Assembly (NCBI RefSeq): GCF_900186865.1 | Contig: NZ_LT906480.1 | Span: 2,746,001 to 2,810,000, forward strand | Direction: 5' to 3' | Length of the DNA: 64,000 bases | DNA from: Stenotrophomonas maltophilia | GTDB taxonomy: Bacteria; Pseudomonadota; Gammaproteobacteria; Xanthomonadales; Xanthomonadaceae | Shown here: in pieces, positions 5,091 through 61,159 of the stretch | Layout: each line of letters begins with the position of its first letter | Numbering within the stretch: position 1 is the first letter of the stretch | Program-made: the position numbers and the translations under genes | Notes under the pieces: generated by a model | Told to the model about the DNA's origin: nothing | The model's database searches: none | What the model saw: only the letters and a program-made list of their open reading frames with translations

Positions 5091-5615
5091 ATGTCCCAGC
5101 TGCCTTCCCCACCCCCTCCCGCGCTGCCGCTGATGTCCTCGCTGGTGCGCCATTACGAGGAACTGGTGGAGTACCTGCGCCGCCGTTTCCGCTCGCCGGG
5201 GTTGGCTCGTGAGGTGGTGCACGATGTCTGCGTGCGCCTGCTGGAACGCCCGGCCGCCTACGATGCACGGCAACCCATCGCGCTGCTGCGGCGGATCGCG
5301 CACGATACGGCGGTGGATCGCTGCCGCGCCGAGGATCTGCGCCGGCACTGGGTGGAAGCGCGTGCCGAGCTGCCCGATGACGCCTGCCCGCGCCCCGGGC
5401 CTGAGCAGCAGGCGCAGGGACAGCAGGCACTGCAACGACTGGGCGCCACCATCGAACGCATGCCCTGCCGCCGCCAGCAGGTCTTCATCCTGCACAAGAT
5501 CCACGAACTGCCACAGGCTGAGGTTGCCCGCCGCATGGGTATCGGCCAGAAGGCGGTGGAGCGCCACCTGCGCCTGGCCATGGCCGATTGCCAACGGTCG
5601 GCTGGCCTGCGATGA
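5091..5615 (+). CDS. ECF-type RNA polymerase sigma factor (FecI-like)
   Basis: About 174 residues from ATG 5091; an ATG at 5133 would give 160. The sigma-2 region is recognisable in SLVRHYEELVEYLRRRF and HDTAVDRCRAEDLR, and the sigma-4 helix-turn-helix in LPQAEVARRMGIGQKAVERHL. This is the FecI class, which redirects RNA polymerase to an adjacent TonB-receptor gene when a FecR partner relays an outer-membrane signal. The stop overlaps the fecR-like start (ATGA at 5612), indicating translational coupling. The actual inducer is unknown. No clear ribosome site decides between the two starts. Confidence 0.88.
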   Translation: MSQLPSPPPPALPLMSSLVRHYEELVEYLRRRFRSPGLAREVVHDVCVRLLERPAAYDARQPIALLRRIAHDTAVDRCRAEDLRRHWVEARAELPDDACPRPGPEQQAQGQQALQRLGATIERMPCRRQQVFILHKIHELPQAEVARRMGIGQKAVERHLRLAMADCQRSAGLR

Positions 5616-6463
5616 GCCCACAACCGCCGCCGTCCCCACCGCAACCGCCGGTCCAACCCGCAACCATCGACCAGGTGCTGGACCAGCATCGCGATGCCCT
5701 GAAGGAACGCTTCCCCATGCCCAGCGCGGATGCGTTGCAGCGTCGTCGCGGTGGGCGTGCGGCGAAGATCGTCCTGCCGCTGCTGCTGATCACGGCCACG
5801 GGCGTGTTCATTGCCGACCCGGCATGGCAGGTGCACGACTATCGGAGCGCGGTGGGCGAACGCCGCGGCATCCGCCTGCCCGATGGCAGCCATCTGCTGC
5901 TCGACGCCGGTACCCATCTGCAGGTTCGCAGGCACATCCGCTCGCGGCAGGTGGTGCTGGTGCAGGGCCAGGCCCGTTTCCAGGTGCAGCACTCGACCTG
6001 GCGCCCGTTCGAGGTCGAGGCCGGGGCGGTGCATGTGCGCAACTATGGCACGGTGTTCGACGTTGACCGGCAGGGTAGCCTCAGCGAGGTAACCCTGTGG
6101 CGCGGCGAGGTGGGCGTGCGTGTGGATGGCGGGGGCGCAGAGCAGCGCCTGAAGCCGGGGCAGCGCGTGCTGGCCCAGCCAGGATCGTTGTCTCCGCCGG
6201 AAGCGGTGGACCCGGATCGAGCCGACTGGACCCGTGGACGGCTGCAATTCGACCGCATGCCGTTGGCCGAGGTGCTGCGCATCCTGCAGCGCTATCACGA
6301 CCGTCCCATCGTGCTGGACGACCCGGTACTGGGGCCGCTGCAGGTGTCAGGCGTCTTCGATGCCGACCGCGCCGAGACTGTACTCGCGCTGCTGCCCGAG
6401 ATCCTGCCGGTACAGGTGCACACCGCTTCCGATGGCAGCCTGCATCTGCGCGCCCGCGATTGA
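5612..6463 (+). CDS. FecR-like anti-sigma / sigma regulator
   Basis: 283 residues, starting on the ATGA that ends the sigma-factor gene. A Pro-rich N-terminus (about residues 1-20) and short cytoplasmic part precede a single membrane helix (IVLPLLLITATGVFI, about 52-66). The periplasmic FecR domain follows, with the characteristic GIRLPDGSHLLLDAGTHL and the later FDRMPLAEVLRILQRY segment, a FecR C-terminal / STN-binding type region. The N-terminal anti-sigma part is shorter than in E. coli FecR. It should pass the receptor-derived signal to the sigma factor at 5091. A TonB receptor with an STN signalling domain follows at 6535, completing the surface-signalling set. Confidence 0.85.
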   Translation: MSPQPPPSPPQPPVQPATIDQVLDQHRDALKERFPMPSADALQRRRGGRAAKIVLPLLLITATGVFIADPAWQVHDYRSAVGERRGIRLPDGSHLLLDAGTHLQVRRHIRSRQVVLVQGQARFQVQHSTWRPFEVEAGAVHVRNYGTVFDVDRQGSLSEVTLWRGEVGVRVDGGGAEQRLKPGQRVLAQPGSLSPPEAVDPDRADWTRGRLQFDRMPLAEVLRILQRYHDRPIVLDDPVLGPLQVSGVFDADRAETVLALLPEILPVQVHTASDGSLHLRARD

Positions 6464-6534
6464 ATGCCACACCGAGGGTGGGTTGCGCGCCGTCCCATCC
6501 GGCAAGTGCTTGAACCCTTCCGAAGGACCCCCGC

Positions 6535-9932
<3,398 letters not shown>

Positions 9933-49687: not shown

Positions 49688-51283
49688 TTACCTGCCGGAA
49701 CCGCCCGCCGCCGCGCCGGGAGCATCGGTCTGCAGCAGGCTGTCTCGCTCGCGCAGCGGAAAGCGGATCCAGGCGTCCAGGCCCTGCGGGCCAAAGCGCA
49801 GCTCGCCGCTGCCGACGAGTTCGTAGGGCACGCGCTGCTCGATCAGCGCCCGGCCAAGGCCACGCTGCCGGGGCTGCTCCCAGTCCTCCACTTCGGCATG
49901 GCGCTCGCACCAGTGCAGACCCAGCCATGGCTGGCCGGCCTGAACCTGCAGATCCCAGGTCACCTCGATCCGGCCATCCTCATGGGTCAGTGCGCCATGC
50001 CGCAGGGCATTGCTCGCCAGCTCGTGGATCGCCAGGGACAGTACTTCGGCCGCCTTCGGCGGCAGCAGCACATCCTCGCCCTGCAGGCGGTAGGCCGCCG
50101 CTGCCGGCGCCTGCGCCGCGATCTCCTCATCGAGCATGCCACGCAGGCAGACCCCGGCATTGGCGCCGCGGGTCAGCAGGCTCTGCGTGCGCGCCAGCGA
50201 CATCAGTCGCCCGCACAACCGTTCAGCGTATTCATCCACGCTGCTGACCGACTCGCGGGTCCGCCAGGCAATGGCATGGATGGTGGACATGATGTTGCGC
50301 ACCCGGTGCTGCAGTTCGGCCAGCAATACAGACTGGCGCTCGGTGGCACGCTTGAGATCGTCGATGTCCACGGCGATGGCAAATACGCCGCTGACCTCAC
50401 CGTCGCCATCGCGCAGGGGCGCGGCCGCGACCCGGGTCCAGCGCGCGCGCCCATCGTCATGCAGATACTGGAACTCCAGCCCCGGCACCACGGTCTCGCC
50501 GCGCATCGCACGGGCGATGGCGAAATCCTCCGGCCCGATGGCGCTGCCGTCCGCATGCCAGCCACGCCAGCGATGCAGGTTCACCTCATCCGTGGAGGGA
50601 ACCTTGCCGCTGGGCAGGTAGGCACGCATCTGGTCGTTGGACAGCTGCAGGCGCCCTTCGGTGTCGACAATGCAGACGCCCACCGGCAGCACCTTGAAGG
50701 CCAATGCCAGGCGCCGGTCCGCCTCCCGCCGCTTCTGCTCTTCGCGCTCGCGTGCCGATTGGGCCACATGCGCCGCTGTGGTCTCGAACATGGTCACGAG
50801 CACGCCGTTGATGCGCCCTTCCTCGCCACGGATCGGGCTGTAGGTAATGGTGAACCAGACATCCTCCAACCGCCCGCGGCGCGCCAGGGGATAGAGTTTG
50901 TCCTCGTAGGTGATGGTTTCGCCCTGCCAGACGCGCTGGTAGATGGGCCCATTGATATGCCAGACCTCGGGCCAGCACTCGCGGGTCGGCTGGCCGAGCC
51001 CGCCGGGATGCTTGTCGGCCAGAATCTCGGCATAGCCATCGTTGTAGAGCTGCACCACCTGCTCACCCCACAGCACGATCATCGGGAAACCATGGGCCAG
51101 CATCAGGTCGACGGTGGCGCGCAGGTGGGGCGGCCACTGCTCGCAGGCACCCAACGGCGTGGATGACCAGTCGTGGCGGGCGATGCGCGCGGCCATGCCA
51201 TCGTGGCGCACATGCAGCTGCGGTGCAGGTGGCATCTGGCCACGCAGCTTGGCGGCGTGGATGTCTTCAGGACGGCGCGACAT
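49688..51283 (-). CDS. PAS-domain HWE-type sensor histidine kinase
   Basis: 531 residues from ATG 51283; a TTG at 51292 would overlap the receiver gene stop. No membrane helix. A first PAS/GAF-like domain (about 50-165, GFPMIVLWGEQVVQLYNDGYA), a second PAS (about 195-310, VGVCIVDTEGRLQLSNDQMR) and an HWE kinase core with H-box ELQHRVRNIMSTI near residue 330, IHELASNALRHGAL and CERHAEVEDWEQPRQRGLG. Cytoplasmic sensor, possibly light- or redox-linked. Encoded immediately after the receiver gene. Confidence 0.87.
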   Translation of the reverse strand: MSRRPEDIHAAKLRGQMPPAPQLHVRHDGMAARIARHDWSSTPLGACEQWPPHLRATVDLMLAHGFPMIVLWGEQVVQLYNDGYAEILADKHPGGLGQPTRECWPEVWHINGPIYQRVWQGETITYEDKLYPLARRGRLEDVWFTITYSPIRGEEGRINGVLVTMFETTAAHVAQSAREREEQKRREADRRLALAFKVLPVGVCIVDTEGRLQLSNDQMRAYLPSGKVPSTDEVNLHRWRGWHADGSAIGPEDFAIARAMRGETVVPGLEFQYLHDDGRARWTRVAAAPLRDGDGEVSGVFAIAVDIDDLKRATERQSVLLAELQHRVRNIMSTIHAIAWRTRESVSSVDEYAERLCGRLMSLARTQSLLTRGANAGVCLRGMLDEEIAAQAPAAAAYRLQGEDVLLPPKAAEVLSLAIHELASNALRHGALTHEDGRIEVTWDLQVQAGQPWLGLHWCERHAEVEDWEQPRQRGLGRALIEQRVPYELVGSGELRFGPQGLDAWIRFPLRERDSLLQTDAPGAAAGGSGR

Positions 51284-51292
51284 GCCGCGCAA

Positions 51293-51718
51293 TCAGGCAA
51301 TGCCCGCAGAGACCTGCGGCGCCGCCACCAGCGCGGCCAGCTGCTGCACCAGCGCTTCGATGTGATAAGGCTTGGTACAGCGCGGCGCGCTGGCAAAGCG
51401 GCTGGGCAGGTTGTCGTCGTAACCGGAGGTCAGCAGGAAGGGGATACCCGTCTCGGCCAGCCGATCGGCCAGCGGATAGACCTGCTCACCGCCCAGGTTG
51501 ATGTCCAGCAATGCCACATCGATGGGATGGGTATCGACCAGCCGCCCCAGCGCCTGCAGGTCACCGGCAGGCCCCACCACCTGTGCGCCTTTCAGCTCCA
51601 GATAGTCGACCAGAAACATCGCGATGGCGAATTCATCCTCCGCCACCAGTACACGCAGCCCTTTCAGGCCCTCTGGTTTGTTGCCCGCTTCCAGCACGAC
51701 CGGCGCTCCTCGATACAC
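51293..51718 (-). CDS. Stand-alone receiver-domain response regulator
   Basis: 141 residues, receiver only. VAEDEFAIAMFL acid pocket, Asp72 in ALLDINLGG, SGYDD Thr/Ser position, and Lys in CTKPYHIE. Family receivers of this type partner HWE kinases. It lies directly upstream of the kinase, so the pair is an operon. No output domain, so it acts by protein contact or phosphate relay. Confidence 0.85.
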   Translation of the reverse strand: MYRGAPVVLEAGNKPEGLKGLRVLVAEDEFAIAMFLVDYLELKGAQVVGPAGDLQALGRLVDTHPIDVALLDINLGGEQVYPLADRLAETGIPFLLTSGYDDNLPSRFASAPRCTKPYHIEALVQQLAALVAAPQVSAGIA

Positions 51719-51832
51719 GCGGCCCAGCTCTGCCGCAACAGCCCAAGGATGCGCGAAACGGGCTACAAGAGCGCGTGATGATGAATGAAGATCGCGGCCA
51801 CGGCGCGTTCACCGTGCAGCGCAGCGGCGCGT

Positions 51833-53287
51833 TCAGAAGGCCCGTTCCCATTTCAGGCTGAGCAGGCTGCGGTCGTGGCTGTACAGCCAGCCGACGTTGC
51901 TGTCGATGCGCGCGTAGCGCAGGCTCAGGCTGGGCACCAGCCCGGCCACCGCCAGGTGCTCGCTGCGCACGACAGCAATCAGGTTCTGTTCGCTGTCCTC
52001 ACGCCGCGCCTCCAGCAGCGGGCTCCACGCCTCGTAGTCGCGCTCGCGCAACGACACGAACACGGTGGCGGTGGTGCCCGTCCACTGGCGCGCCGCCCCC
52101 AGGCGCAGTCCACGCTGGCGGTAACCGTTGGCCGGATTGGCGGCGCGGCTGTCACTCAGGTCCAGCCCGGCAAAGAGGGTCCAGCGCGTGTTGAGCGCAC
52201 GGAACCAGGTGGCATACACCGCGGCCAGCTCACCGTCGTAATTGCTGGCCAGGCCGCGCTGGCGATAGCGCTGGCGCTTCCAGTCGGCCTCCAGCCTGAG
52301 CAGGCTGCGCGCGTCCAATGCATATTGCCATTCGCCATGCAGCCCGCTGCCGCCCTGCAGGGCCCGGTTGCCCAGGCCCTGGTAGTCATAGCTCGGCGCG
52401 ATCTGCAGGGTATGCCGTGCGCTGCGCCAGCTATAGCCCGCCTGCACGCTCGCATTGAGCTCGTTGTAGGCGCTGTGCCCGCGCCATGCCTGGCCGAACG
52501 CAAGCGCGCGCACATAGACGCCGTGATGACCGGCCAATGCCCAGCGACGCTCCAGGTTGCCGTCGTAGTCCAGGCCCATGGCGCGCTGGGCATCGGGAAG
52601 ATTGCGCTGGATGATGCAGGTGTCGCCCACCCCGAACAGGCAGGTGCGGCTGGCCGAGCTGCGGTTGATGTTATCGCTCCATGCCGGGCCGGCTGCCAGC
52701 GCTCCTTTCCAACGCCTGCGCGCCTGCAGTGCGGCCAGGTAGGCGTCCACCCGTCCGCGTACACCGGCGGTGGCGGGGTCGTCAGCATTGATGTCACCGG
52801 CGATGGCCGTGAACAACGCCTCCGCATCGCGGTCGCGCTGGTCCTCGGCATGGACACGTGCAAGCTCAAGGCGGGCCGGCAGGAAATCCGGCTGCGCCGC
52901 CAGCAGTGCTTCGTACTCGTTGGCCGCGCGGTGGTGATTGCCGGCCACCCGCGCCAGGCCGCCCTGCGCGTAGTGGCGCAGCAACGGGTCGTGGCCGGGC
53001 AGTTCGATGTATTCGTCCAGGAAGCGCTGCGCTGCGCCCCATTGCTGATGCTGCAGCGACAGGTACAGCGCCTGGCCCAGATCGTCGACCGTGCGCTCCA
53101 CGCGCAGGGTCTGGCCGTCGATGGTGATGGTCGGTCGCGCCGACTCGGCCTGCTGCAGGCGCTGCTGGTCCTGCTGCTGGTGGCGCAGTTCGCTGCCCTG
53201 CTCCAGCACGCGACGAAGATCATCCTGCTGGGCGCGCACATCGGCAGCCGCCAGCAACAGGATCATAAGGAAGATGGGATGGCGCAT
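51833..53287 (-). CDS. Surface lipoprotein assembly modifier (Slam, DUF560), type XI secretion channel
   Basis: 484 residues from ATG 53287 (MRHPIFLMILLLAAADVRA signal peptide); ATG 53308 is an in-frame alternative. N-terminal periplasmic TPR part (about 60-190, DDLGQALYLSLQHQQWGAAQRFLDEY, ANEYEALLAAQPDFLPARLELARVHAED) and a C-terminal 14-strand barrel of the Slam type (GPAWSDNINRSS, SLRERDYEAW, LYSHDRSLLSLKWERAF). Slam proteins move TbpB-fold lipoproteins or soluble hemophores across the outer membrane. The adjacent gene encodes exactly such a client. Confidence 0.9.
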   Translation of the reverse strand: MRHPIFLMILLLAAADVRAQQDDLRRVLEQGSELRHQQQDQQRLQQAESARPTITIDGQTLRVERTVDDLGQALYLSLQHQQWGAAQRFLDEYIELPGHDPLLRHYAQGGLARVAGNHHRAANEYEALLAAQPDFLPARLELARVHAEDQRDRDAEALFTAIAGDINADDPATAGVRGRVDAYLAALQARRRWKGALAAGPAWSDNINRSSASRTCLFGVGDTCIIQRNLPDAQRAMGLDYDGNLERRWALAGHHGVYVRALAFGQAWRGHSAYNELNASVQAGYSWRSARHTLQIAPSYDYQGLGNRALQGGSGLHGEWQYALDARSLLRLEADWKRQRYRQRGLASNYDGELAAVYATWFRALNTRWTLFAGLDLSDSRAANPANGYRQRGLRLGAARQWTGTTATVFVSLRERDYEAWSPLLEARREDSEQNLIAVVRSEHLAVAGLVPSLSLRYARIDSNVGWLYSHDRSLLSLKWERAF

Positions 53288-53356
53288 GGTCGATCCGTGG
53301 TGATGCATGCAGCGGGCCGAAGCAGGGACTGGCGGATCGCGGCTTGTCCCTGCCCT

Positions 53357-53370
53357 GCCCCGTCAGGGGC
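53357..53370 (-). terminator. Short hairpin between the client and Slam genes
   Basis: GCCCC-GTCA-GGGGC, a 5-bp stem 8-21 bp after the client gene stop. May reduce read-through so that the client is made in excess over Slam. Confidence 0.35.
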
Positions 53371-53377
53371 GTGGCAA

Positions 53378-54142
53378 TCAGTTCTTGCTGCCGCCGAAGG
53401 CGGTGTCGTACTGGCTGTTGCCGGCGAAGGTGGCGATGCCGGCCAGGGTGGCGGCGTTGGCGCCGAAGAACTGGCCCTGGGTGGTGCCGTTGACGCTGCC
53501 ATTGACGTTGGCCGAACCGGCGAACGATGCATCGGCACTGTTGATGTTGGCAACGATGGCCAGGGTCAGGCCATTGCCGGACAGCGCACCATCCAGGGTG
53601 CCGGCGCCGAAGTCGGCGTCGAAGGTGCCGCTCAGAAGGTTGCTGCCGTTGAACTTGTTCAGGCCGGCCACGGTGTAGGACGCCACGCCGGCGGGCAGCG
53701 TGGTGCCGGCACGGTCACCAACGAAGTAGACCTGGCGGTTGTTGAAGCCACCGGCGGCGCCATCCTTGGACCATTCGCCGAACCAGACATCACCACTGCC
53801 GACCTTGACGAAGTTGAAGTGGCCCATGCCGGCGTGGCTGCCCGGTGCGCCGGTGATCGGCATGGCCAGGGTACGTACCGTCACGCCATTGACGGTGGTG
53901 GGTGCCGAGTAGGCGCTCAGGCCCTGGAAGTCCACCGGCTTGGCCTGGGACACGGTACCGACACCGATGCCGGCCTTGCCAGCGCGGTGCGGGCCGCCAT
54001 TGACCTGCGATTCACCAACCGCCACGTACAGCTCGGCATCGGTCCTGGCACTGGCGGCACCGACGATATCGGCAGCATGCGCGGCACCGACCAGAGCCAG
54101 CGAGGCGGCAACGGCGAGCACCGAACGGGAGATCATTTTCAT
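53378..54142 (-). CDS. Hemophilin-like Slam-dependent secreted protein (TbpB-barrel fold)
   Basis: 254 residues, AGGAG before the ATG. Sec signal (AVAASLALVGAAHA) without a lipobox, so soluble like HphA rather than surface-anchored. An N-terminal handle domain (about 23-115) with His residues (GGPHRAGK, GSHAGMGHFNF) is followed by an eight-strand beta barrel (about 140-254) with GTFDADFGAGTLDGALSG, GSANVNGSVNG and the family end GQFFGANAATLAGIATFAG. Hemophilins capture heme and deliver it to a TonB receptor. Slam lies downstream and the receptor upstream in the same orientation. Heme as ligand is inference. Confidence 0.82.
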   Translation of the reverse strand: MKMISRSVLAVAASLALVGAAHAADIVGAASARTDAELYVAVGESQVNGGPHRAGKAGIGVGTVSQAKPVDFQGLSAYSAPTTVNGVTVRTLAMPITGAPGSHAGMGHFNFVKVGSGDVWFGEWSKDGAAGGFNNRQVYFVGDRAGTTLPAGVASYTVAGLNKFNGSNLLSGTFDADFGAGTLDGALSGNGLTLAIVANINSADASFAGSANVNGSVNGTTQGQFFGANAATLAGIATFAGNSQYDTAFGGSKN

Positions 54143-54195
54143 GGTATTGCTCCTTGGTTGAGGGAACTACGGGTACAACGCTTGAAGATGGGAGA

Positions 54196-57100
54196 TCAGA
54201 AGCGCGCGGTGACGCCGAGCTTCAGGGTGCGACCCGGGGCTGGCAGCGTGGACCGCGTGGCTGGATCGACGTAGTAGCGGTTGCCGAGGTTGCTGCCGAC
54301 CAGTTCGACGCTGGCATGCTCGTTGAAGCGCCAGCGCGCATAGGCATCGACGGTGGTGATGTTTCCCCAGGTGAACGGCACGTTCTGCCAGAGCAGGCCG
54401 CTGCCGCCGCTCAGCAGGCGATCACGGTAGGCCTGCAGGTCAGGGTTCTCGTGCCGCCGGTAGTGCACGATGCGGCTGCCCAGCTCCAGGCGCTCATCGA
54501 ACAGGCGCGTGCCCAGCGACCCGTTGATCGACAGCCTGGGAATGGCCTGGGTCAGCAGGTAGCCACCGACGAAACCATCCTGCACGCAGTTCGGAACCAG
54601 GCCGCGGTTCGCGTCCAGGAGCACCGCCGTGCTCTCGTCACACACCTCGTTTTCCAGCGTGCGGGTGATGCCCAGATCGGTGAAGAAGCGCCGGTTGTCG
54701 AAGCGGGCCTGCAGTTCGATACCACGGATGGTCTGCTTGTCGACGTTGTCGAACAGGAAGTTGCCATCGCGTTCGATCACGTCACGGGTCTTGTGCACGT
54801 AGTACGCCAGCTTGACGTCGGCATCGGCGGTGTTGCCGAACAGGGCCGACAGGTTGTGCACGTAGCCCACCTCGTAGTTGTAGGCGTGCTCGGGCTTGAG
54901 CGCATGCAGCGGATTGAGGCTGCCGGAGAAGGCGATGGTGCTTTCGAACATGCTCGGGAAGCGCACCGCTTCGCTGTAACGCACGTAGGCACGGGCGGCC
55001 GGGGACAGGTGTGCAGTGGCCGAGAAGGTCGGCAGCCAGGCATGGTCGCGGCGGCGGCTGTTGCGTCCATCGACCGGCTGCGACTGTACGCTGTTGCCGA
55101 TGTTGCAGACCTGGTCGCTGCCGGCGAACACCGGCTTCACGCCGGGAATGGCCGCCACTTCGCCATTGAGGCAGGGATTGCCGGCGCGGGTGTAGTTGCC
55201 ATCGGCATCGGGCAGCCAGGGCCGCGTGTACCGGACCGGACGCGGCGTCTCGTACGGTGCCAGCAACGCACGGATGCTGTCGTCGATGAACCAGCCCATG
55301 CCGCGCTTTTCCCATACGGCGCGGCGTGCTTCCAGCGCGTCGATGCGGGCCTGCAGATTGGCGGGACGGGGCGGCAATTCGTTCACGGTGTACTGCGCTT
55401 CCTTGCCACCTACGCCCTTGGTCAGCAGCTCGGGGTGCGCCTCGAGGAAATCGTCGAAGGCCCAGTAGCGGCTGTAGCGCACGCCTGCATTGAGGGTGAG
55501 GAAGTCGAGCGGCCGCCACTCCAGGGTCAGGTAGCCTTCACCCTCCTGGCGGCGCCCGGCACGCGGGAACATGCGCCAGCCATCGGTGGTGCCGAAGTAC
55601 GGATCGCGGGACCCCAGCTTCTCGTACTGCCAGTTGCCGCCCACAGTCAGGTCCAGGGTCGAATGCAGCGCGAAGCGGTTGCTCAGGATCAGGCCGGTGC
55701 GGTCATTGCGCGCGTTGGCCAGCGCGGTATTGCGCAGGATCGGGCTGGCGTCCGGATTCCATGCCGGATTACCCACTGCGAAGTTCGGGAAGCCGCCAGC
55801 GCTGTAGGTATCGCTTTCCGTTTCCGTGCGCCACAGGTTGGCGTACAGGTCCAGCCAACGACTGCCGGCGGGCTGGAAACGGTATTCCAGGTTCCACGCA
55901 TCCGAATCGACCCGGCTGAGCGGCCACTGGATGCGGCCGTAGTCGGGGGCCGACAGGATGCGAGACGGCATGATCTCGCCGTAGTGCGACAGCGTGCGCC
56001 GCCAGGTCGCCTTCAACTGCTGGTCATCGTTGATCTGCCAGCTGCCTTTGACCAGCCAGGACTCCTGTTCGCTGGAGGTATTGGGCACTTCATCGCCGGG
56101 CTTGAAGTAGCGCGCCAGCGTGGTGATGTAGTCGATGCCCTGGTACTCGAACTGCTCGCGCTGGTCCTGTTCGTAGTAGGCGCTGCCCTGGGTCCCGGAG
56201 AAGTAGTTGCCGCGCTTGCGCCAGGCGTAGGCGGCCATCAGGTCGACGTTGTCGCCACGCACGCCCAGCGCCAGGCGCCAGGCCTGGTCCTCGCCATCGA
56301 AGGGATTGTTGCCACTGCGCGATTTCACCGGCACCACCAGGGTGCGGTCGTCGTAGGGTGAGTTCGGCGAGCCCTGCGGGAAGCCCGGCACGGTGCGGTA
56401 ATCCTCGCCGGTGTGCAGCCGCGGCAGGCGCGGCGCCACCGCATTGCTGCTGCCTTCGATCTTCAGCTCCCCGCCGAAGCGCTCGCCGGCAGCGACGATG
56501 TCATCGACGTCGATGGTCTTGATCACCAGCGCGCCACCGATCCCGCTGTGCACATCGCGCACCAGCCCTGGCCCCTTGATGACCTGGATGCCACCAATCA
56601 GGTTGGGATCGATGTAGTTGCGGTTGCTGACGCCGTTGTAGCCACGCCAGACAGTGAGCGCCTGTTCGCCGCCGTCGATGCTGACCGGCACCCGCCCGGG
56701 CCCCTGGATGCCACGGATGTTGACGTCCAGCGCGCCGCTGTTGCGCGCATCGCCACTGAACACGCCGACCAGATCCTTGACCACGTCGGCCGGATTGGAG
56801 CCTCGGTAACGCTCCACCCGGTCGCGCCCCGAATACGCCGTGGTCATGTCCAGCGCGAACACATCGTCGTAGCCACGCCGATCGCGGGCCTCACCCCCTT
56901 CCGACTGAAGGCGACCGGCCACGTCCAGTGTTTCGGTCACCCGCACCCCTTCCCCTTCACCCGCCTCCGCTGCGGCCCGCAGGCTCCAGGTTCCGTCCAT
57001 GCCGCGCTGCGCGCGTACGCCGCTGCCGCGCAACAGCTGTTGCAGCGCCTGCATCTGGCTGTACTCACCCTTCACTGCGCTGGAGCGGCGGCCGTCCACC

Positions 57101-57318
57101 AGGTCGCTGCGGAACACCACCTGCACATCGGCCTGGCGGCCAAAAGCGCGTACGGCATCAGCCAGCGGCTGCTCCGGAATGGTGTACTGGCGCACCGGCG
57201 CGACGATCGCCGGCTGCGCCTGCACGGCCGGCACCCAGGCCAGCGGCAGCAATGCGGTGGAAACAGCCAGGGCCAGAGCGGTGGCGCGACGATGACAGGC
57301 GGACGCCGTGGACGGCAT
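54196..57318 (-). CDS. Large TonB-dependent receptor with STN domain (hemophore-receptor-like)
   Basis: 1040 residues. Signal peptide ends near residue 34; STN signalling domain about 43-112 (YTIPEQPLADAVRAFGRQADVQVVF); plug about 155-275 (NIRGIQGPGRVPVSIDG, GGIQVIKGPG); long-loop barrel ending LKLGVTARF. The barrel contains RFPSMFEST and NPLHALKPEHAYNYEVGYV, in the place of the FRAP/NPNL-type motif of heme receptors, and several Cys pairs in extracellular loops. With Slam and the hemophilin-like protein it forms an HphR-like set; STN links it to the FecR-like protein at 57501. Confidence 0.87.
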   Translation of the reverse strand: MPSTASACHRRATALALAVSTALLPLAWVPAVQAQPAIVAPVRQYTIPEQPLADAVRAFGRQADVQVVFRSDLVDGRRSSAVKGEYSQMQALQQLLRGSGVRAQRGMDGTWSLRAAAEAGEGEGVRVTETLDVAGRLQSEGGEARDRRGYDDVFALDMTTAYSGRDRVERYRGSNPADVVKDLVGVFSGDARNSGALDVNIRGIQGPGRVPVSIDGGEQALTVWRGYNGVSNRNYIDPNLIGGIQVIKGPGLVRDVHSGIGGALVIKTIDVDDIVAAGERFGGELKIEGSSNAVAPRLPRLHTGEDYRTVPGFPQGSPNSPYDDRTLVVPVKSRSGNNPFDGEDQAWRLALGVRGDNVDLMAAYAWRKRGNYFSGTQGSAYYEQDQREQFEYQGIDYITTLARYFKPGDEVPNTSSEQESWLVKGSWQINDDQQLKATWRRTLSHYGEIMPSRILSAPDYGRIQWPLSRVDSDAWNLEYRFQPAGSRWLDLYANLWRTETESDTYSAGGFPNFAVGNPAWNPDASPILRNTALANARNDRTGLILSNRFALHSTLDLTVGGNWQYEKLGSRDPYFGTTDGWRMFPRAGRRQEGEGYLTLEWRPLDFLTLNAGVRYSRYWAFDDFLEAHPELLTKGVGGKEAQYTVNELPPRPANLQARIDALEARRAVWEKRGMGWFIDDSIRALLAPYETPRPVRYTRPWLPDADGNYTRAGNPCLNGEVAAIPGVKPVFAGSDQVCNIGNSVQSQPVDGRNSRRRDHAWLPTFSATAHLSPAARAYVRYSEAVRFPSMFESTIAFSGSLNPLHALKPEHAYNYEVGYVHNLSALFGNTADADVKLAYYVHKTRDVIERDGNFLFDNVDKQTIRGIELQARFDNRRFFTDLGITRTLENEVCDESTAVLLDANRGLVPNCVQDGFVGGYLLTQAIPRLSINGSLGTRLFDERLELGSRIVHYRRHENPDLQAYRDRLLSGGSGLLWQNVPFTWGNITTVDAYARWRFNEHASVELVGSNLGNRYYVDPATRSTLPAPGRTLKLGVTARF

Positions 57319-57452
57319 GGACAGGAACTCCTCAAGCGGGGCGGGACCACGGGCACGTCCGGTGCCGGTGGCATGTCTGGCTTGAGGAGAAACGGTGTTT
57401 CGCTCTGGCTATACCTCTATAGACAGCGGGGCACTGCAGTTGCCCACGGTTC

Positions 57453-57470
57453 TTTCATGTTTTTTTCATG
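57453..57470. promoter_or_regulatory. A-tract and 11-bp-spaced TTTCATG repeat upstream of the receptor
   Basis: TTTCATG occurs at 57453 and 57464 with a run of seven Ts between. On the minus strand this gives CATGAAAA…CATGAAAG about 135 bp before the receptor start, in an otherwise GC-rich gap of 182 bp after the FecR-like gene. A promoter UP element or the ECF-sigma-dependent promoter is plausible. Confidence 0.35.
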
Positions 57471-57500
57471 CGACCCGTTCATCCGGGTGCTGGGCGGGCC

Positions 57501-58457
57501 TCACCACAGCACCAGCGCGCCGCCGGGCAAGCGCTGCACGCGCAGTCCCGCCTGTGCGGCCACCGCGTAAATGGCGGTCTCCGGCTGTTGCAGGTGGAAC
57601 AGGCCACTGACCCGTACGCTTGCGCCCTGCCCGCCCAGTACCCAGACCGGAGCACGCCGGTAGCGCGCCAGATTGGCGATGGCCTGCGCGGCGGGCTGAT
57701 CGTCGATCACTACCTCGCCACGCCGCCATGGCGCCATGGCATCCGGATCGGCCTGCCGCAGCGGCTGCAGCCAGCGACCGTCACGGAACACCCGTGCCTG
57801 CCCCGCATGCAGGCGCTGTACGCTGCCATCGCCCGGACGCACGTCGACCACACCCTCGCTGACCTGGGTGGTGACCGTGGTATCCAGCATCGACACACTG
57901 AAGGCGGTACCGATTTCACGGACCAGGCCGCCCGCCGCCTCGACCTGGAACGGTCGCGCCTCATGGGCCACCTGGAACCAGGCCTGGCCGCGCAGCAGGC
58001 GCAGGTGCCGCTGCTGGCCATCGAACGCAACCGCCAATGCGGTGCCCGCATCGAGTACGGCGGTGCTGCCGTCCTCCAGCTGCACCACGCGCGGTGCATC
58101 GCTGCTGCGCAGGTCACCGCGTGCCAGCAACAGCGCGTGTGGCGCAGCGGCAACCATCAGCACCACTGCGGCTGCACTGGCCAGCAGCCACGGCAGGCGC
58201 CGACGCGGTGCGATCGGGCGCAACCCTTGGCGATCAGCCGTCAACCCGGGCAGCGCGGCCAGCACGTCGGGCCCGGCGGCATCCAACCCTTGCCAGAAGG
58301 CCTGCTGCTGGCGCCAGGCCAGCGCATGGCGCGGATCGGCCTGCAGCCAGCGCTGCAGGGTTCGTTGCTGGCGTTCCGGCAGCGGGCCTGCACTGCACTG
58401 GATCACCCAGCGCAACGCCTGCCTGGCCTGACGCGGCGAGGGTTCGGACGTGGTCAT
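57501..58457 (-). CDS. FecR-like sigma regulator of the Slam locus
   Basis: 318 residues from ATG 58457. N-terminal DUF4880-type anti-sigma part (ALRWVIQCSAGPLPERQQRTLQRWL, HALAWRQQQAFW), one membrane helix (LPWLLASAAAVVLMVAAAPHALLLA, about 115-138), then the FecR domain (VVQLEDGSTAVLDAGTALAVAF) and a C-terminal STN-like fold (GEVVIDDQPAAQAIANLARY). Transmits receptor occupancy to the ECF sigma factor encoded 85 bp upstream. Confidence 0.88.
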   Translation of the reverse strand: MTTSEPSPRQARQALRWVIQCSAGPLPERQQRTLQRWLQADPRHALAWRQQQAFWQGLDAAGPDVLAALPGLTADRQGLRPIAPRRRLPWLLASAAAVVLMVAAAPHALLLARGDLRSSDAPRVVQLEDGSTAVLDAGTALAVAFDGQQRHLRLLRGQAWFQVAHEARPFQVEAAGGLVREIGTAFSVSMLDTTVTTQVSEGVVDVRPGDGSVQRLHAGQARVFRDGRWLQPLRQADPDAMAPWRRGEVVIDDQPAAQAIANLARYRRAPVWVLGGQGASVRVSGLFHLQQPETAIYAVAAQAGLRVQRLPGGALVLW

Positions 58458-58542
58458 GGTTGTGGCCTGCCGCACCGCGAGCGGGTGCGCCTTCCTCTTG
58501 TGACAACGGCGGGCGCGATCTGCCCACGGCAATCGCCGCTCA

Positions 58543-59043
58543 TCAATGCATTCCCTGCTGGTGCTGCTGGATCAACAGTGCCGCGCGCAGCACGTGCTTG
58601 CCGACCAGGCTCTTGGAAATACCCAGCCGGGTGGCGATCTCGCGCTCGCTCAGGCCCAGGTAGCGGTTGAGCACGAAGCACTCACGCACCTGCGCCGGCA
58701 GCGCGAGGATGGTCCTGGTGATCTCGCGCAGTTGTGCCTGGTCCAGCGCATGCGCCTCGCCGTCGTGGCCCGCCTCGGCCATGTCGAGGGCGTACTCGGC
58801 CATCGCCCGCCGCTCGCGGGCGTCGGACTGGCTGCGGTTGAGCGCGTGATGGTAGGCCATCCGGTACAGATAGCCGCGCGGCTCCAGGATGGGCGGATCG
58901 CCGGGCACGCTGCTGGCCTTCAGGTACAGGTTCTGCAGGGTGTCCTCGGTACTGGCCGGGTCGAGATAGCGCGCGATGAAGCGAGACAACGCACGGCGCT
59001 CGCGGATCAGCAGCTCGACCAGCGCCAGGGCATTGGGAGACAT
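58543..59043 (-). CDS. ECF sigma factor (FecI-like) of the Slam locus
   Basis: 166 residues from ATG 59043. Sigma-2 (LIRERRALSRFIARYL, YHHALNRSQSDARERR) and sigma-4 (LGLSEREIATRLGISKSLVGKHV) regions. First gene of the ECF sigma / FecR / receptor / hemophilin / Slam series, all on the minus strand. Probable client promoter: upstream of the receptor. No clear Fur box was seen in front of it. Confidence 0.88.
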   Translation of the reverse strand: MSPNALALVELLIRERRALSRFIARYLDPASTEDTLQNLYLKASSVPGDPPILEPRGYLYRMAYHHALNRSQSDARERRAMAEYALDMAEAGHDGEAHALDQAQLREITRTILALPAQVRECFVLNRYLGLSEREIATRLGISKSLVGKHVLRAALLIQQHQQGMH

Positions 59044-59146
59044 AGGTGCCAAGGCCGGACCGGGGAATGATGGGCGTGATGGCGACGGTCCGGACGTGGA
59101 TTGTGGGCTGCACGGCCGCAGGCGGCAAGCCGCGGCCGAGAGCTTC

Positions 59147-59207
59147 ATCCACGCATGGCGTGGATCTACCAAGGCGCAGGTCCAGTAGATCCACGCCATG
59201 CGTGGAT
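59147..59207. repeat. SMAG head-to-head dimer
   Basis: Reverse copy ATCCACGC-ATG-GCGTGGATCTAC (59147-59169) and forward copy GTAGATCCACGC-CAT-GCGTGGAT (59185-59207) can form one long stem. It lies between the ECF sigma promoter and the LysR gene end. Confidence 0.85.
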
Positions 59208-59214
59208 GGAAGAG

Positions 59215-60141
59215 TTAGGGTTCCTCCAGCGCCTCGAAGCGTTCGGCGAGGTAATCGATCAGTGCACGCACCGCCGGCAACAGGCCGCGTCGCGACGGGA
59301 ACACCGCGTGCACGATGCCGTGCTTGGGCACCCACTCCGGCAGCACCGGCACCAGCGCGCCACTGGCCAGTTCGTCACTGATCATCATCCGCGGCAGCAT
59401 CAGCAACCCCACCCCGGCCACCGCAGCGGTGCGCAACGCGATCATGTCATCGCTGACCAGCCGCGGGCGATGATGCACGCTGGCCAGCACGTCGCCCGGC
59501 CCGGTGTATTCCCATACATGCTGCTGGCTGGGCGATGCCAGATCGACGGTCGGCATCATCGCCAGGTCGGCCGGCACCTGCGGCGTGCCCAGCCGCTGCA
59601 GCAGCGCCGGACTGGCACTGGTACACCAGACCCGACGCGCCAGCACGCGTACCACCAGGTCGCTGTCCTCCAGTGGCGGCGGCCGCACGCGGATCGCCAC
59701 GTCCACACCCTCGCCCACCACGTCGACGCGCCGGTTGGTGGCGTCCAGCTGCACCGTCACCTGCGGGTGCTGGGCCAGGAAGTCGGCCAGCATCGGGCCG
59801 ATGCGCGCATGCAGGATCGCGATCGGGCACGCCAGGCGGATCGTGCCGCGCGGCTCGGCGCGCGACATCGCAATCGCTTCTTCGGCCGCTTCGGCTTCGA
59901 CCAGCATCGCCTTGCAGTGGCGGTAGTAGTCCTGGCCGACCTCGGTGACCGAGAAACGCCGGGTCGAGCGCTGGATCAGGCGCACGCCCAACCGTTCCTC
60001 CAGCAGCGCGATGCGCCGGCTCAGTTTCGACTTCGGCATGGCCAGCGCCCGGCCGGCCTGCGAGAAGCCGCCGTGCTCGACCACCATGGCGAAGTAGAAC
60101 AGGTCGTTGAGGTCGCAACGGCGGATATCAGCGATGAACAT
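59215..60141 (-). CDS. LysR-family regulator divergent from pirin
   Basis: 308 residues from ATG 60141 (AGGAG 9 bp upstream). HTH at LNDLFYFAMVVEHGGFSQAG and LAMPKSKLSRRIALLEERLG; effector domain with LACPIAILHARIGPMLADFL. Very similar in kind to regulators beside pirin genes in proteobacteria. Divergent from the pirin gene; probably controls the pirin / two hydrolases / OsmC group. Confidence 0.88.
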   Translation of the reverse strand: MFIADIRRCDLNDLFYFAMVVEHGGFSQAGRALAMPKSKLSRRIALLEERLGVRLIQRSTRRFSVTEVGQDYYRHCKAMLVEAEAAEEAIAMSRAEPRGTIRLACPIAILHARIGPMLADFLAQHPQVTVQLDATNRRVDVVGEGVDVAIRVRPPPLEDSDLVVRVLARRVWCTSASPALLQRLGTPQVPADLAMMPTVDLASPSQQHVWEYTGPGDVLASVHHRPRLVSDDMIALRTAAVAGVGLLMLPRMMISDELASGALVPVLPEWVPKHGIVHAVFPSRRGLLPAVRALIDYLAERFEALEEP

Positions 60142-60292
60142 GGGGCGATCTCCTGTGGCGCAAGGCGCGCACCCATTGTTCACCAGATAGGACTATGACG
60201 GCAAATATTGGCGTCTACCGGCCCAATTGTCGCGGCGATATCGTCTCCTGCAACGAAGAACAGCGGCCGGCAGCCCCGGCCAGGAGATGGCC

Positions 60293-61159
60293 ATGAAGCG
60301 TGTCACCGGTACTTATAGCGCCCCGCGCCCGCACTGGGTGGGCGACGGATTCCCCGCCCGCTCGATGTTTTCCTACAACACCCACGGCCAGCACCTGAGC
60401 CCGTTCCTGCTGCTGGACTACGCCGGCCCTTATACCTTCGCCCCCAGCGATACCCCGCGCGGGGTCGGCCAGCATCCGCATCGCGGTTTCGAGACCGTCA
60501 CCATCGTCTATGAGGGCGAGGTCGCCCACCGCGATTCAACCGGCGCCGGCGGCACCATCGGCCCGGGTGACGTGCAGTGGATGACCGCGGCCTCCGGCAT
60601 CCTCCACGAGGAGTTCCACACACCGGAGTTCAGCAAGCGGGGCGGCACGCTGGACATGGTCCAGCTGTGGGTGAACCTGCCCGCGCAGGACAAGATGGGT
60701 GCACCGGGCTACCAGACCCTGCTCGACGCACAGATCCCCTCGGTTGAACTGCCTGAAGGCGCCGGCCGCGTGCGTATCATCGCCGGTCGCTTCGACGGTC
60801 ATGCCGGCCCGGCCCGCACCCACACGCCGATGAATGTCTGGGACATCCGCCTGCGGCAGGGCCACCACGCCGAACTGCCGGTGGCCGATGGCCGCACGCT
60901 GGCGCTGGTGGTGCTGAAGGGCACGGTGCGGATCAACGGCGGCCAGCCGGTCGGCGAGGCACAGCTGGTCACCTTCGACCGCAGCGGCGAGGACGTGTTC
61001 GTCGACGCCGACAGCGACGCCACCGTGCTGCTGCTCAGCGGTGAACCGATCGACGAGCCGGTGGTGGGCTATGGCCCGTTCGTGATGAACAGCCAGGCCG
61101 AGATCGCGCAGGCGGTCAACGACTTCAACAGCGGCCGCTTCGGCCAGATCGCGCACTGA
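60293..61159 (+). CDS. Pirin-family protein
   Basis: 288 residues from ATG 60293 (AGGAG six bases upstream; ATG 60287 alternative). Double cupin. Metal ligands in the N-terminal cupin: His61 and His63 in GQHPHRGFETV, His105 and Glu107 in GILHEEFH. Some bacterial pirins are quercetinases; others bind partner proteins. Starts a run of small stress or catabolic genes under a divergent LysR. Confidence 0.9.
   Translation: MKRVTGTYSAPRPHWVGDGFPARSMFSYNTHGQHLSPFLLLDYAGPYTFAPSDTPRGVGQHPHRGFETVTIVYEGEVAHRDSTGAGGTIGPGDVQWMTAASGILHEEFHTPEFSKRGGTLDMVQLWVNLPAQDKMGAPGYQTLLDAQIPSVELPEGAGRVRIIAGRFDGHAGPARTHTPMNVWDIRLRQGHHAELPVADGRTLALVVLKGTVRINGGQPVGEAQLVTFDRSGEDVFVDADSDATVLLLSGEPIDEPVVGYGPFVMNSQAEIAQAVNDFNSGRFGQIAH

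What the first reader, a model, noticed from the sequence alone, without database searches (positions are those of the whole stretch)
51833..59043. Slam / hemophilin-like / STN receptor locus under its own ECF sigma-FecR pair
Seen: on one strand, ECF sigma, FecR-like, 1040-residue STN receptor, soluble TbpB-barrel protein with signal peptide but no lipobox, and Slam. Known: Slam (type XI secretion) exports hemophilins that feed a TonB receptor. Inference: a heme (or other ligand) capture circuit in which the loaded secreted protein also triggers its own transcription through the receptor STN domain. Coupling of a Slam client to cell-surface signalling is the unusual part and the best candidate for a new system here.
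Basis: partly seen in the sequence, partly recalled or inferred. Interest (0 to 1): 0.78.

Follow-up and report, generated by a model that had tools for sequence, protein, structure and literature searches.

The report
Secreted heme-scavenger operon with own sensor
This bacterium carries a five-gene set that secretes a heme-grabbing protein, takes up its heme through a surface receptor, and very likely uses that receptor to switch its own genes on; the parts and their layout are already known from relatives, so it is a good member of a known kind rather than a new system.

Summary
In detail: on the minus strand, 59043-51833, lie an ECF sigma factor, a FecR-type regulator, a 1040-residue STN/TonB receptor, a soluble hemophilin and a Slam. 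The 254-residue protein is a true hemophilin (both HphA domains, 201 of 231 residues identical to solved 8GMM, no cysteine, both heme-ligand histidines kept). The claim that coupling a Slam client to surface signalling is unusual fails: of 74 hemophilin loci with a whole receptor in view, 48 have sigma, FecR and STN, 25 have none, 1 is mixed; the A. baumannii hemO cluster is tabulated in print with the same order. Order, receptor (HasR is the best solved relative) and logic match the has operon, with hemophilin and Slam in place of hasA and hasDE. New support: a two-block promoter with a fixed 16-base spacer before the receptor in Stenotrophomonas; in 21 marine loci a motif whose -35 half matches the published HasI target, before the receptor in 14 and before the hemophilin gene in 12, but absent from the window's own branch. 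Loaded hemophilin as inducer is inferred, not shown. Verdict: new member of a known kind.

The parts
58546..59043 (-). ECF sigma factor (FecI/HasI type), 166 aa
   Evidence: Pfam Sigma70_r4_2 1.2e-12; 40% identical over residues 1-154 to the sigma of the HemI-type locus in the same genome
57501..58532 (-). FecR-type sigma regulator (343 aa from TTG 58532, or from ATG 58457): DUF4880 and FecR domains
   Evidence: Pfam DUF4880 and FecR; best solved relative the PupR periplasmic part, 6OVK chain R, E 4e-15
54196..57318 (-). TonB-dependent receptor with N-terminal STN signalling domain, 1040 aa, HasR-like
   Evidence: Pfam STN, Plug, barrel; best solved relative HasR, E 2.2e-25; profile of 7 such receptors: HasR 7.5e-53, next chain 1.5e-23
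53378..54142 (-). hemophilin (HphA), 254 aa, signal peptide, no lipobox, heme ligands predicted H52 and H103
   Evidence: HphA_N 8.4e-30 and HphA_C 4.6e-20; 8GMM E 7e-123, 201/231 identical, no Cys
51833..53308 (-). Slam / type XI secretion outer membrane protein, 491 aa (or from ATG 53287)
   Evidence: SlipAM 2.6e-48, TPR_Slam 1.1e-21
57389..57460 (-). promoter-like block before the receptor: GTGGGCA (57447-57441), 16 bases, GTCTATAG (from 57424)
   Evidence: conserved blocks with variable spacer in window + 19 loci; spacing 16 in 21 of 80 sequences scanned, spacings 10-15 and 17-23 together 1 match
59044..59105 (-). nearly invariant leader before the sigma gene (ACAAT-like block and CGGACC/GGTCCG arms)
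   Evidence: kept in 20 sequences where the DNA further upstream differs; fold z -1.74; function unknown
53322..53353 (-). conserved inverted repeat GCAGGGAC/GTCCCTGC between hphA and slam
   Evidence: 21 sequences; fold z -1.31, so not exceptional for its composition

Best explanation
A has-like heme-scavenging operon in which hemophilin and Slam stand in for HasA and its exporter. Steps: under iron shortage the sigma and FecR genes are expressed (inferred for the window; clear Fur boxes were seen only in relatives). Hemophilin goes through Sec by its signal peptide and across the outer membrane by Slam (shown in A. baumannii, inferred here). Outside it takes heme between H52 and H103 (shown for the A. 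baumannii protein, inferred here) and brings it to the receptor, which imports heme with TonB energy. Occupied receptor changes its STN contact with the periplasmic end of FecR, FecR is processed, and the sigma factor drives the receptor-hphA-slam unit from the promoter before the receptor (promoter supported by conservation; the rest inferred from Has, Fec and Fox systems). The result is positive feedback: more scavenger, exporter and receptor while heme-loaded scavenger returns.
For: Domains and identity of all five proteins. STN goes with sigma and FecR: 48 of 74 loci have all three, 25 none, 1 mixed. Receptor nearest to HasR; FecR nearest to PupR and the receptor's STN also matches PupB (3.5e-9), the two partners solved together in 6OVK. 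Stenotrophomonas promoter blocks with fixed 16-base spacing before the receptor; hphA follows after 53 bases and slam after 69. Marine relatives: motif before the receptor in 14 and before hphA in 12 of 21 loci, 0 in 25 loci without sigma/FecR, 0 in the Markov null; its -35 half is TTTACGG[G/A]TTT, the HasI target being TTTACGGGTTT (PMC9249621 passage), letter for letter in the site before V. harveyi hphA. Fur-like sites of 15-17 of 19 before sigma in 11 of 16 marine loci scanned. L056: FecR cut to DUF4880 and receptor without STN, both gone together. An A. baumannii hphR mutant makes less HphA (PMC8560813 passage), though a polar effect could explain that.
Against: The STN/sigma/FecR co-occurrence is one change on the Slam tree, one independent pair, so it is not repeated proof. 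The window has no clear Fur box before sigma: best 11 of 19, shuffle p 0.055; of 13 xanthomonad/Caulobacter loci scanned only L084 reaches 15 or more. The marine motif is absent from all 27 xanthomonad/Caulobacter loci of this layout, the window's branch, and from the plus strand of 3 of the 21 marine loci. In S. maltophilia KJ the paralogous hemI operon is hemin-induced but not autoregulated (PMC12772443, parts 1-4 of 5 read). In Fox the signalling domain protects the anti-sigma factor when the signal is absent (PMC11637429 abstract), so the sign of the STN contact is open. Nothing here shows that hemophilin, not free heme, is the signal.
Confidence: 0.75

Rival explanations
1. The receptor signals when it binds free heme or heme proteins directly; hemophilin only feeds heme and is not part of the signal.
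For: The review on Has speaks of transcription initiation by free heme as well as by hemophore-bound heme (PMC9249621 passage); the hemI operon of S. maltophilia responds to hemin (PMC12772443); STN receptors without a hemophilin beside them exist in the same genome, L129 and L130.
Against: Hemophilin sits in the same unit and, in 12 of 21 marine loci, has the motif of its own; HasR signalling in Serratia involves loaded HasA. Neither decides it.
Confidence: 0.3
2. The sigma/FecR pair is a neighbour that controls other genes, and hphA and slam are simply Fur-regulated.
For: No promoter motif of its own was seen before hphA or slam in the window; the pair is 3' of slam in two Pseudoalteromonas loci; the sigma promoter is not proven.
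Against: Fixed-spacing promoter before the receptor; in the own genome the pattern gave this site and one other with spacer 19; marine motif before receptor, hphA and, in V. harveyi, exbB; 0 sites in the 25 loci lacking the pair, although an earlier matrix gave one minus-strand site in one of them, L099.
Confidence: 0.08
3. The locus is the published HemI-HemR-HemA system itself rather than a second circuit.
For: Same sigma-FecR-STN receptor order in what is, by its nearest relatives, the same genus.
Against: The own genome has a separate locus at 4085000-4102000 with sigma, FecR, STN receptor, DUF2789, heme oxygenase, DUF454, ExbB, ExbD and TonB, which fits the published neighbourhood; its sigma is 40% identical to the window's.
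Confidence: 0.02

Closest known systems
Acinetobacter baumannii hemO cluster (ECF sigma, anti-sigma, hphR, hphA, hsmA, TonB-related, heme oxygenase)
   Same: Same order of the five genes; soluble hemophilin exported by Slam; heme ligands correspond (passages; alignment).
   Different: The window has no TonB or heme oxygenase gene next to slam; in this genome such genes lie with the second, HemI-type locus. Whether HphR has an STN domain was not tested. PMC10483418 calls the cluster unique to Acinetobacter; the first five genes are found in that order elsewhere here.
Hemophilin of PDB 8GMM
   Same: 201 of 231 residues identical; hemophilins of this genus come as near as 225 of 231 (which compared only frames holding the letters ADIVG).
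   Different: An allele or sister species. That it is the S. maltophilia protein is recalled; its likely paper (10.1128/jb.00027-24) was not held, so what it says on sigma/FecR is unknown.
has operon of Serratia (hasI-hasS-hasR-hasA-hasD-hasE-hasB)
   Same: Sigma, anti-sigma, STN receptor, hemophore, exporter in that order (passages); HasR is the nearest solved receptor.
   Different: Hemophore and exporter are of other families: hemophilin and Slam; no HasA match in the own genome, but the controls of that search were silent too.
HemI-HemR-HemA of S. maltophilia
   Same: FecI/FecR/STN heme receptor in the same genus.
   Different: No hemophilin or Slam in its published neighbourhood or in L129; sits with heme oxygenase and ExbBD-TonB; published operon not autoregulated.
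Vibrio harveyi hemophilin locus (L067)
   Same: Sigma, FecR, STN receptor, hemophilin, Slam on one strand. The first 32 residues visible agree with the solved hemophilin 8GM3.
   Different: Two PKD-domain proteins between receptor and hphA, ExbBD-TonB after slam, five motif copies, Fur-like site 16 of 19 before sigma.

Membership tests
Slam-dependent hemophilin (HphA) | HphA N-terminal heme-binding and C-terminal barrel domains | tested here: met
   PF22828 8.4e-30, PF22829 4.6e-20; 8GMM 7e-123
Slam-dependent hemophilin (HphA) | soluble: signal peptide, no lipobox | tested here: met
   no cysteine in 254 residues; 8GMM chain begins at the residue matching 24; no signal-peptide program was run
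Slam-dependent hemophilin (HphA) | heme-coordinating histidines | tested here: met
   H52 and H103 fall on H43 and H106 of A. baumannii HphA, read by hand from the printed alignment; both 90% or more conserved in the 24 hemophilins aligned
Slam-dependent hemophilin (HphA) | secretion depends on Slam; heme binding | not testable with these tools
   bench only
Slam / type XI secretion | SlipAM barrel with N-terminal TPR domain | tested here: met
   PF04575 2.6e-48, PF24575 1.1e-21
FecI/FecR surface signalling | STN domain in the receptor beside sigma and FecR genes | tested here: met
FecI/FecR surface signalling | FecR with cytoplasmic DUF4880 and a periplasmic part able to meet STN | tested here: met
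   DUF4880 and FecR domains; alignment to PupR over residues 147-334; contact itself not tested
FecI/FecR surface signalling | sigma-dependent promoter before the receptor | tested here: inconclusive
   conserved two-block motif with fixed spacing; that this sigma reads it is inferred
FecI/FecR surface signalling | Fur box before sigma | tested here: inconclusive
   11 of 19, shuffle p 0.055 in the window; 15-17 of 19 in 11 of 16 marine loci and 1 of 13 xanthomonad/Caulobacter loci scanned
has operon | HasA hemophore and its exporter HasDE | tested here: not met
   hemophilin and Slam stand in their place; no HasA match in the own genome, controls silent

The most novel reading that the evidence does not exclude
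Hemophilin/Slam operons of alpha- and gammaproteobacteria are has operons with cargo and exporter exchanged: one HasI/HasS/HasR-type signalling chassis serves two unrelated hemophores and two unrelated secretion machines, loaded hemophilin is itself the inducer, and the sigma factor directly transcribes the hemophilin gene, its exporter, the receptor and, where linked, the TonB motor. Slam cargo would then be made on demand by its own success outside the cell.
Probability: 0.5. Interest if true: 0.55.

Novelty: new member of a known kind. Interest (0 to 1): 0.42.

Why it matters
If right, heme scavenging by type XI secretion is wired to success outside the cell, as in the Has system, across many genera. 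It gives a concrete test (promoter motif before hphA, sigma deletion, loaded against empty hemophilin) for how the supply of a Slam cargo is matched to need, and a natural form without the sensing parts (L056) to compare with.

Tried and rejected
Rejected: that the layout is unique; that the locus is the published HemI locus; that the Fisher p of 7e-19 proves functional coupling, since the Slam tree has a single change. Set aside: an RNA element in the sigma leader or the hphA-slam gap; Rfam gave no match at E up to 1 in 51000-60300 and the folds are not exceptional (z -1.31 and -1.74). The Stenotrophomonas promoter pattern in the own genome gave the locus and one place with spacer 19, so no wider regulon was found; none of the four other fetched stretches of the genome carries the -10 block. 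HasA search over 369 genomes of the class: 0, controls silent, so it says nothing about absence. HphA_N in the class: 3 of 369, two of them in the window's genus including the own genome; in the genus 39 of 91. Whether A. baumannii HphR has an STN domain stayed open: none of the names shown among the 120 listed of 1034 receptors is Acinetobacter, and most rows bear no organism. No structure was predicted, since 8GMM is 87% identical.

Rows dropped and sample: the 79 loci are the kept part of 171 relatives, rich in Stenotrophomonas and Morganellaceae. 5 of 79 lack a whole receptor (L037, L058, L068, L069, L103) and were left out of the 74. For the tree, 6 of 79 were skipped and 14 near copies dropped, leaving 59; it is a quick tree with long branches meeting. 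The Fur scan took 29 loci. Sigma and FecR were counted anywhere on the plus strand of the stretch held, up to about 10 kb from hphA. The motif scan's held-out loci include close kin of the training loci, and one site (L057 19818, 16.8 bits) lies outside the gene set. A looser form of the Stenotrophomonas pattern gives one further place, in L033 at 679.
Full report
What is there. The five genes lie on the minus strand with intact frames: sigma 59043-58546, FecR to 57501, receptor 57318-54196, hemophilin 54142-53378, Slam to 51833. Pfam places each, except that region 2 of the sigma factor is too weak to be listed; NCBIfam's best sigma model spans residues 17-154, below its cut-off. The hemophilin matches 8GMM at E 7e-123, 201 of 231 mature residues identical, and has no cysteine. 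H52 and H103 fall on the two heme-coordinating histidines of A. baumannii HphA, as read by hand from the alignment (ligands H43 and H106 from passages of PMC8560813); both are 90% or more conserved in the 24 hemophilins aligned.

Which genome. The window is a 64-kb part of a 5.0-Mb genome in one contig, with one hemophilin. Nearest loci by hemophilin (97-99%) are Stenotrophomonas maltophilia or uncultured Stenotrophomonas, and one bin titled Rickettsia, so the genus is inferred from neighbours. HphA_N is present in 39 of 91 genomes of the genus, so the trait is patchy. Flanks in the 20 loci L032-L051: the response-regulator side is found in 19 (not in L034, whose piece ends before it; displaced in L050); the LysR side in 11, and two of the nine without it (L033, L037) end before that point.

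Not the HemI locus. A paper of December 2025 describes HemI-HemR-HemA in S. maltophilia KJ (PMC12772443, parts 1-4 of 5 read). The own genome holds a fitting neighbourhood elsewhere: 4085000-4102000 has sigma, FecR, STN receptor, DUF2789, heme oxygenase, DUF454, ExbB, ExbD, TonB. The window's locus is a second circuit; the two sigma factors are 40% identical.

How common. One genome scan with a profile of 24 hemophilins gave 171 relatives, of which 79 loci were kept. Of 74 with a whole receptor in view, 48 have STN in the receptor plus sigma and FecR on the same strand within the stretch, 25 have none of these, and one (L056) has sigma and a short FecR but no STN. The 48 include Stenotrophomonas, Xanthomonas, Lysobacter, Pseudoxanthomonas, Vibrio, Marinomonas, Marinobacterium, Salinivibrio, Alcanivorax, Pseudoalteromonas and the alphaproteobacterium Caulobacter; the 25 are Xenorhabdus, Photorhabdus and two Neisseriaceae. 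On a quick Slam tree of 59 loci the two groups are parted by one branch (support 99), so this is one event as far as these data go and not repeated independent evidence.

What was in print. PMC10483418 (passages) tabulates the A. baumannii hemO cluster as ECF sigma, anti-sigma, hphR, hphA, hsmA and on, and calls the cluster unique to Acinetobacter; the first five genes in that order in other genera do not fit that statement, which rested on a search with the whole cluster. PMC8560813 (passages) reports less HphA in an hphR mutant and suggests that the cluster primes expression of heme uptake genes, in a comparison with HasA/HasR; it names no sigma factor (0 occurrences). Two type XI secretion surveys hold no word beginning with sigma or FecR in their main text. 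Of the held library, one paper holds both hemophilin and sigma factor, PMC10483418; none holds hemophilin, Slam and Stenotrophomonas; among the 20 of 139 listed for hemophilin, anti-sigma, FecR, surface signaling, HphR and Slam-dependent, and the 19, no further paper that holds hemophilin also holds anti-sigma or FecR. The spelling haemophilin was not searched across the library. The two J Bacteriol papers of 2024 are not held and may say more; I saw only their entries in a reference list, and what I know of their content is recalled.

Has likeness. In Serratia the order is hasI, hasS, hasR, hasA, hasD, hasE, hasB, and loaded HasA with HasR starts transcription (PMC9249621 passages). The window's receptor finds HasR as best solved relative (2.2e-25), its FecR the PupR periplasmic part (4e-15), and a profile of seven such receptors puts HasR 97 bits above the next chain. 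So the chassis is Has-like; hemophore and exporter are not. No tree of heme receptors was made, so descent from a has operon is a reading, not a result.

Promoters. In window plus 19 Stenotrophomonas loci, the gap between FecR and receptor keeps GTGGGCA and GTCTATAG-like blocks with a variable spacer. Over 79 loci and the window, the pattern with spacing 16 occurs in 21 sequences, all Stenotrophomonas by their DNA (L059 hemophilin only 46% identical), and spacings 10-15 and 17-23 together give one match, in L060. In marine loci a different motif, TTTACGG[G/A]TTT then TTCGGT[G/A]TA, precedes the receptor and other genes. Trained on 7 sites of two loci, a matrix finds 53 plus-strand sites and 1 minus-strand site in 21 loci, 14 before the receptor and 12 before hphA (11 of the latter in the 19 held-out loci); 27 lie elsewhere, and 3 loci (L075, L079, L085) have none on the plus strand. 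Controls: 0 in five Markov copies, 0 in 25 loci without sigma/FecR, 0 in the 27 xanthomonad and Caulobacter loci with them. An earlier matrix, trained on 11 sites, gave one minus-strand site in a locus without the pair, L099, and one null match of 14 bits. The -35 half matches the HasI target TTTACGGGTTT reported for hasS and hasR, exactly so in the site before V. harveyi hphA. In V. harveyi the five sites stand before the receptor, two PKD proteins, hphA and exbB. The window's own branch does not carry this motif.

Iron control. Of 29 loci scanned, best Fur-like sites before sigma reach 15-17 of 19 in 11 of 16 marine loci and 1 of 13 xanthomonad/Caulobacter loci (L084); the window reaches 11 of 19, shuffle p 0.055.

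A natural form without the sensing parts. In L056 the FecR gene stops after DUF4880, and the receptor has Plug and barrel but no STN, while motif sites before receptor, hphA and the next gene remain. Both ends of the periplasmic contact are gone together, as the model predicts, but it is a single case and an assembly fault is not excluded.

Mechanism, shown and inferred. Shown by sequence: identity of parts, layout, conserved promoter-like blocks. Inferred from named families: Sec and Slam export, heme capture, TonB import, STN-FecR signalling, sigma action on the promoter. The sign of the STN contact is debated: in Fox the signalling domain protects FoxR when the signal is absent (PMC11637429 abstract). 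Loaded hemophilin as inducer is the least tested step; free heme is the main rival.

Verdict.

Noticed in passing
window 5115-8964 (+): A second sigma (5115-5600), FecR (5588-6463) and STN receptor (6535-8964) set lies in the same window.
   Followed up: partly
window 59146-59209: Paired inverted copies of a short repeat with the look of SMAG/REP elements (name recalled) lie just before the sigma leader; present in some relatives and missing in others.
   Followed up: no
window 59044-59105: The sigma leader is nearly invariant among 20 sequences although DNA upstream differs; no Rfam match; function unknown.
   Followed up: partly
window 53322-53353: Inverted repeat between hphA and slam is conserved and could make slam expression lower than hphA.
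   Followed up: partly
L043, L044, L045, L051; also genomes G015, G017, G033, G082, G090: Two tandem hemophilin genes in 4 of the 20 loci L032-L051 and two HphA_N matches in 5 of 39 positive genus genomes.
   Followed up: no
L067 6916-8229 and 8382-9791: Two PKD/Ig-domain proteins, lipoprotein-like by eye, between receptor and hemophilin in V. harveyi, each with the promoter motif; similar-sized genes with it in other Vibrio loci.
   Followed up: partly
L056 6553-9879: Photobacterium galatheae: FecR ends after DUF4880 and the receptor lacks STN, with promoter motif sites kept.
   Followed up: partly
L034: A record titled as a Rickettsia endosymbiont MAG carries this Stenotrophomonas locus, likely contamination of the bin.
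   Followed up: no
L070, L076, L077, L082, L086, L087: Xenorhabdus loci hold a second hemophilin and Slam pair near the first.
   Followed up: no
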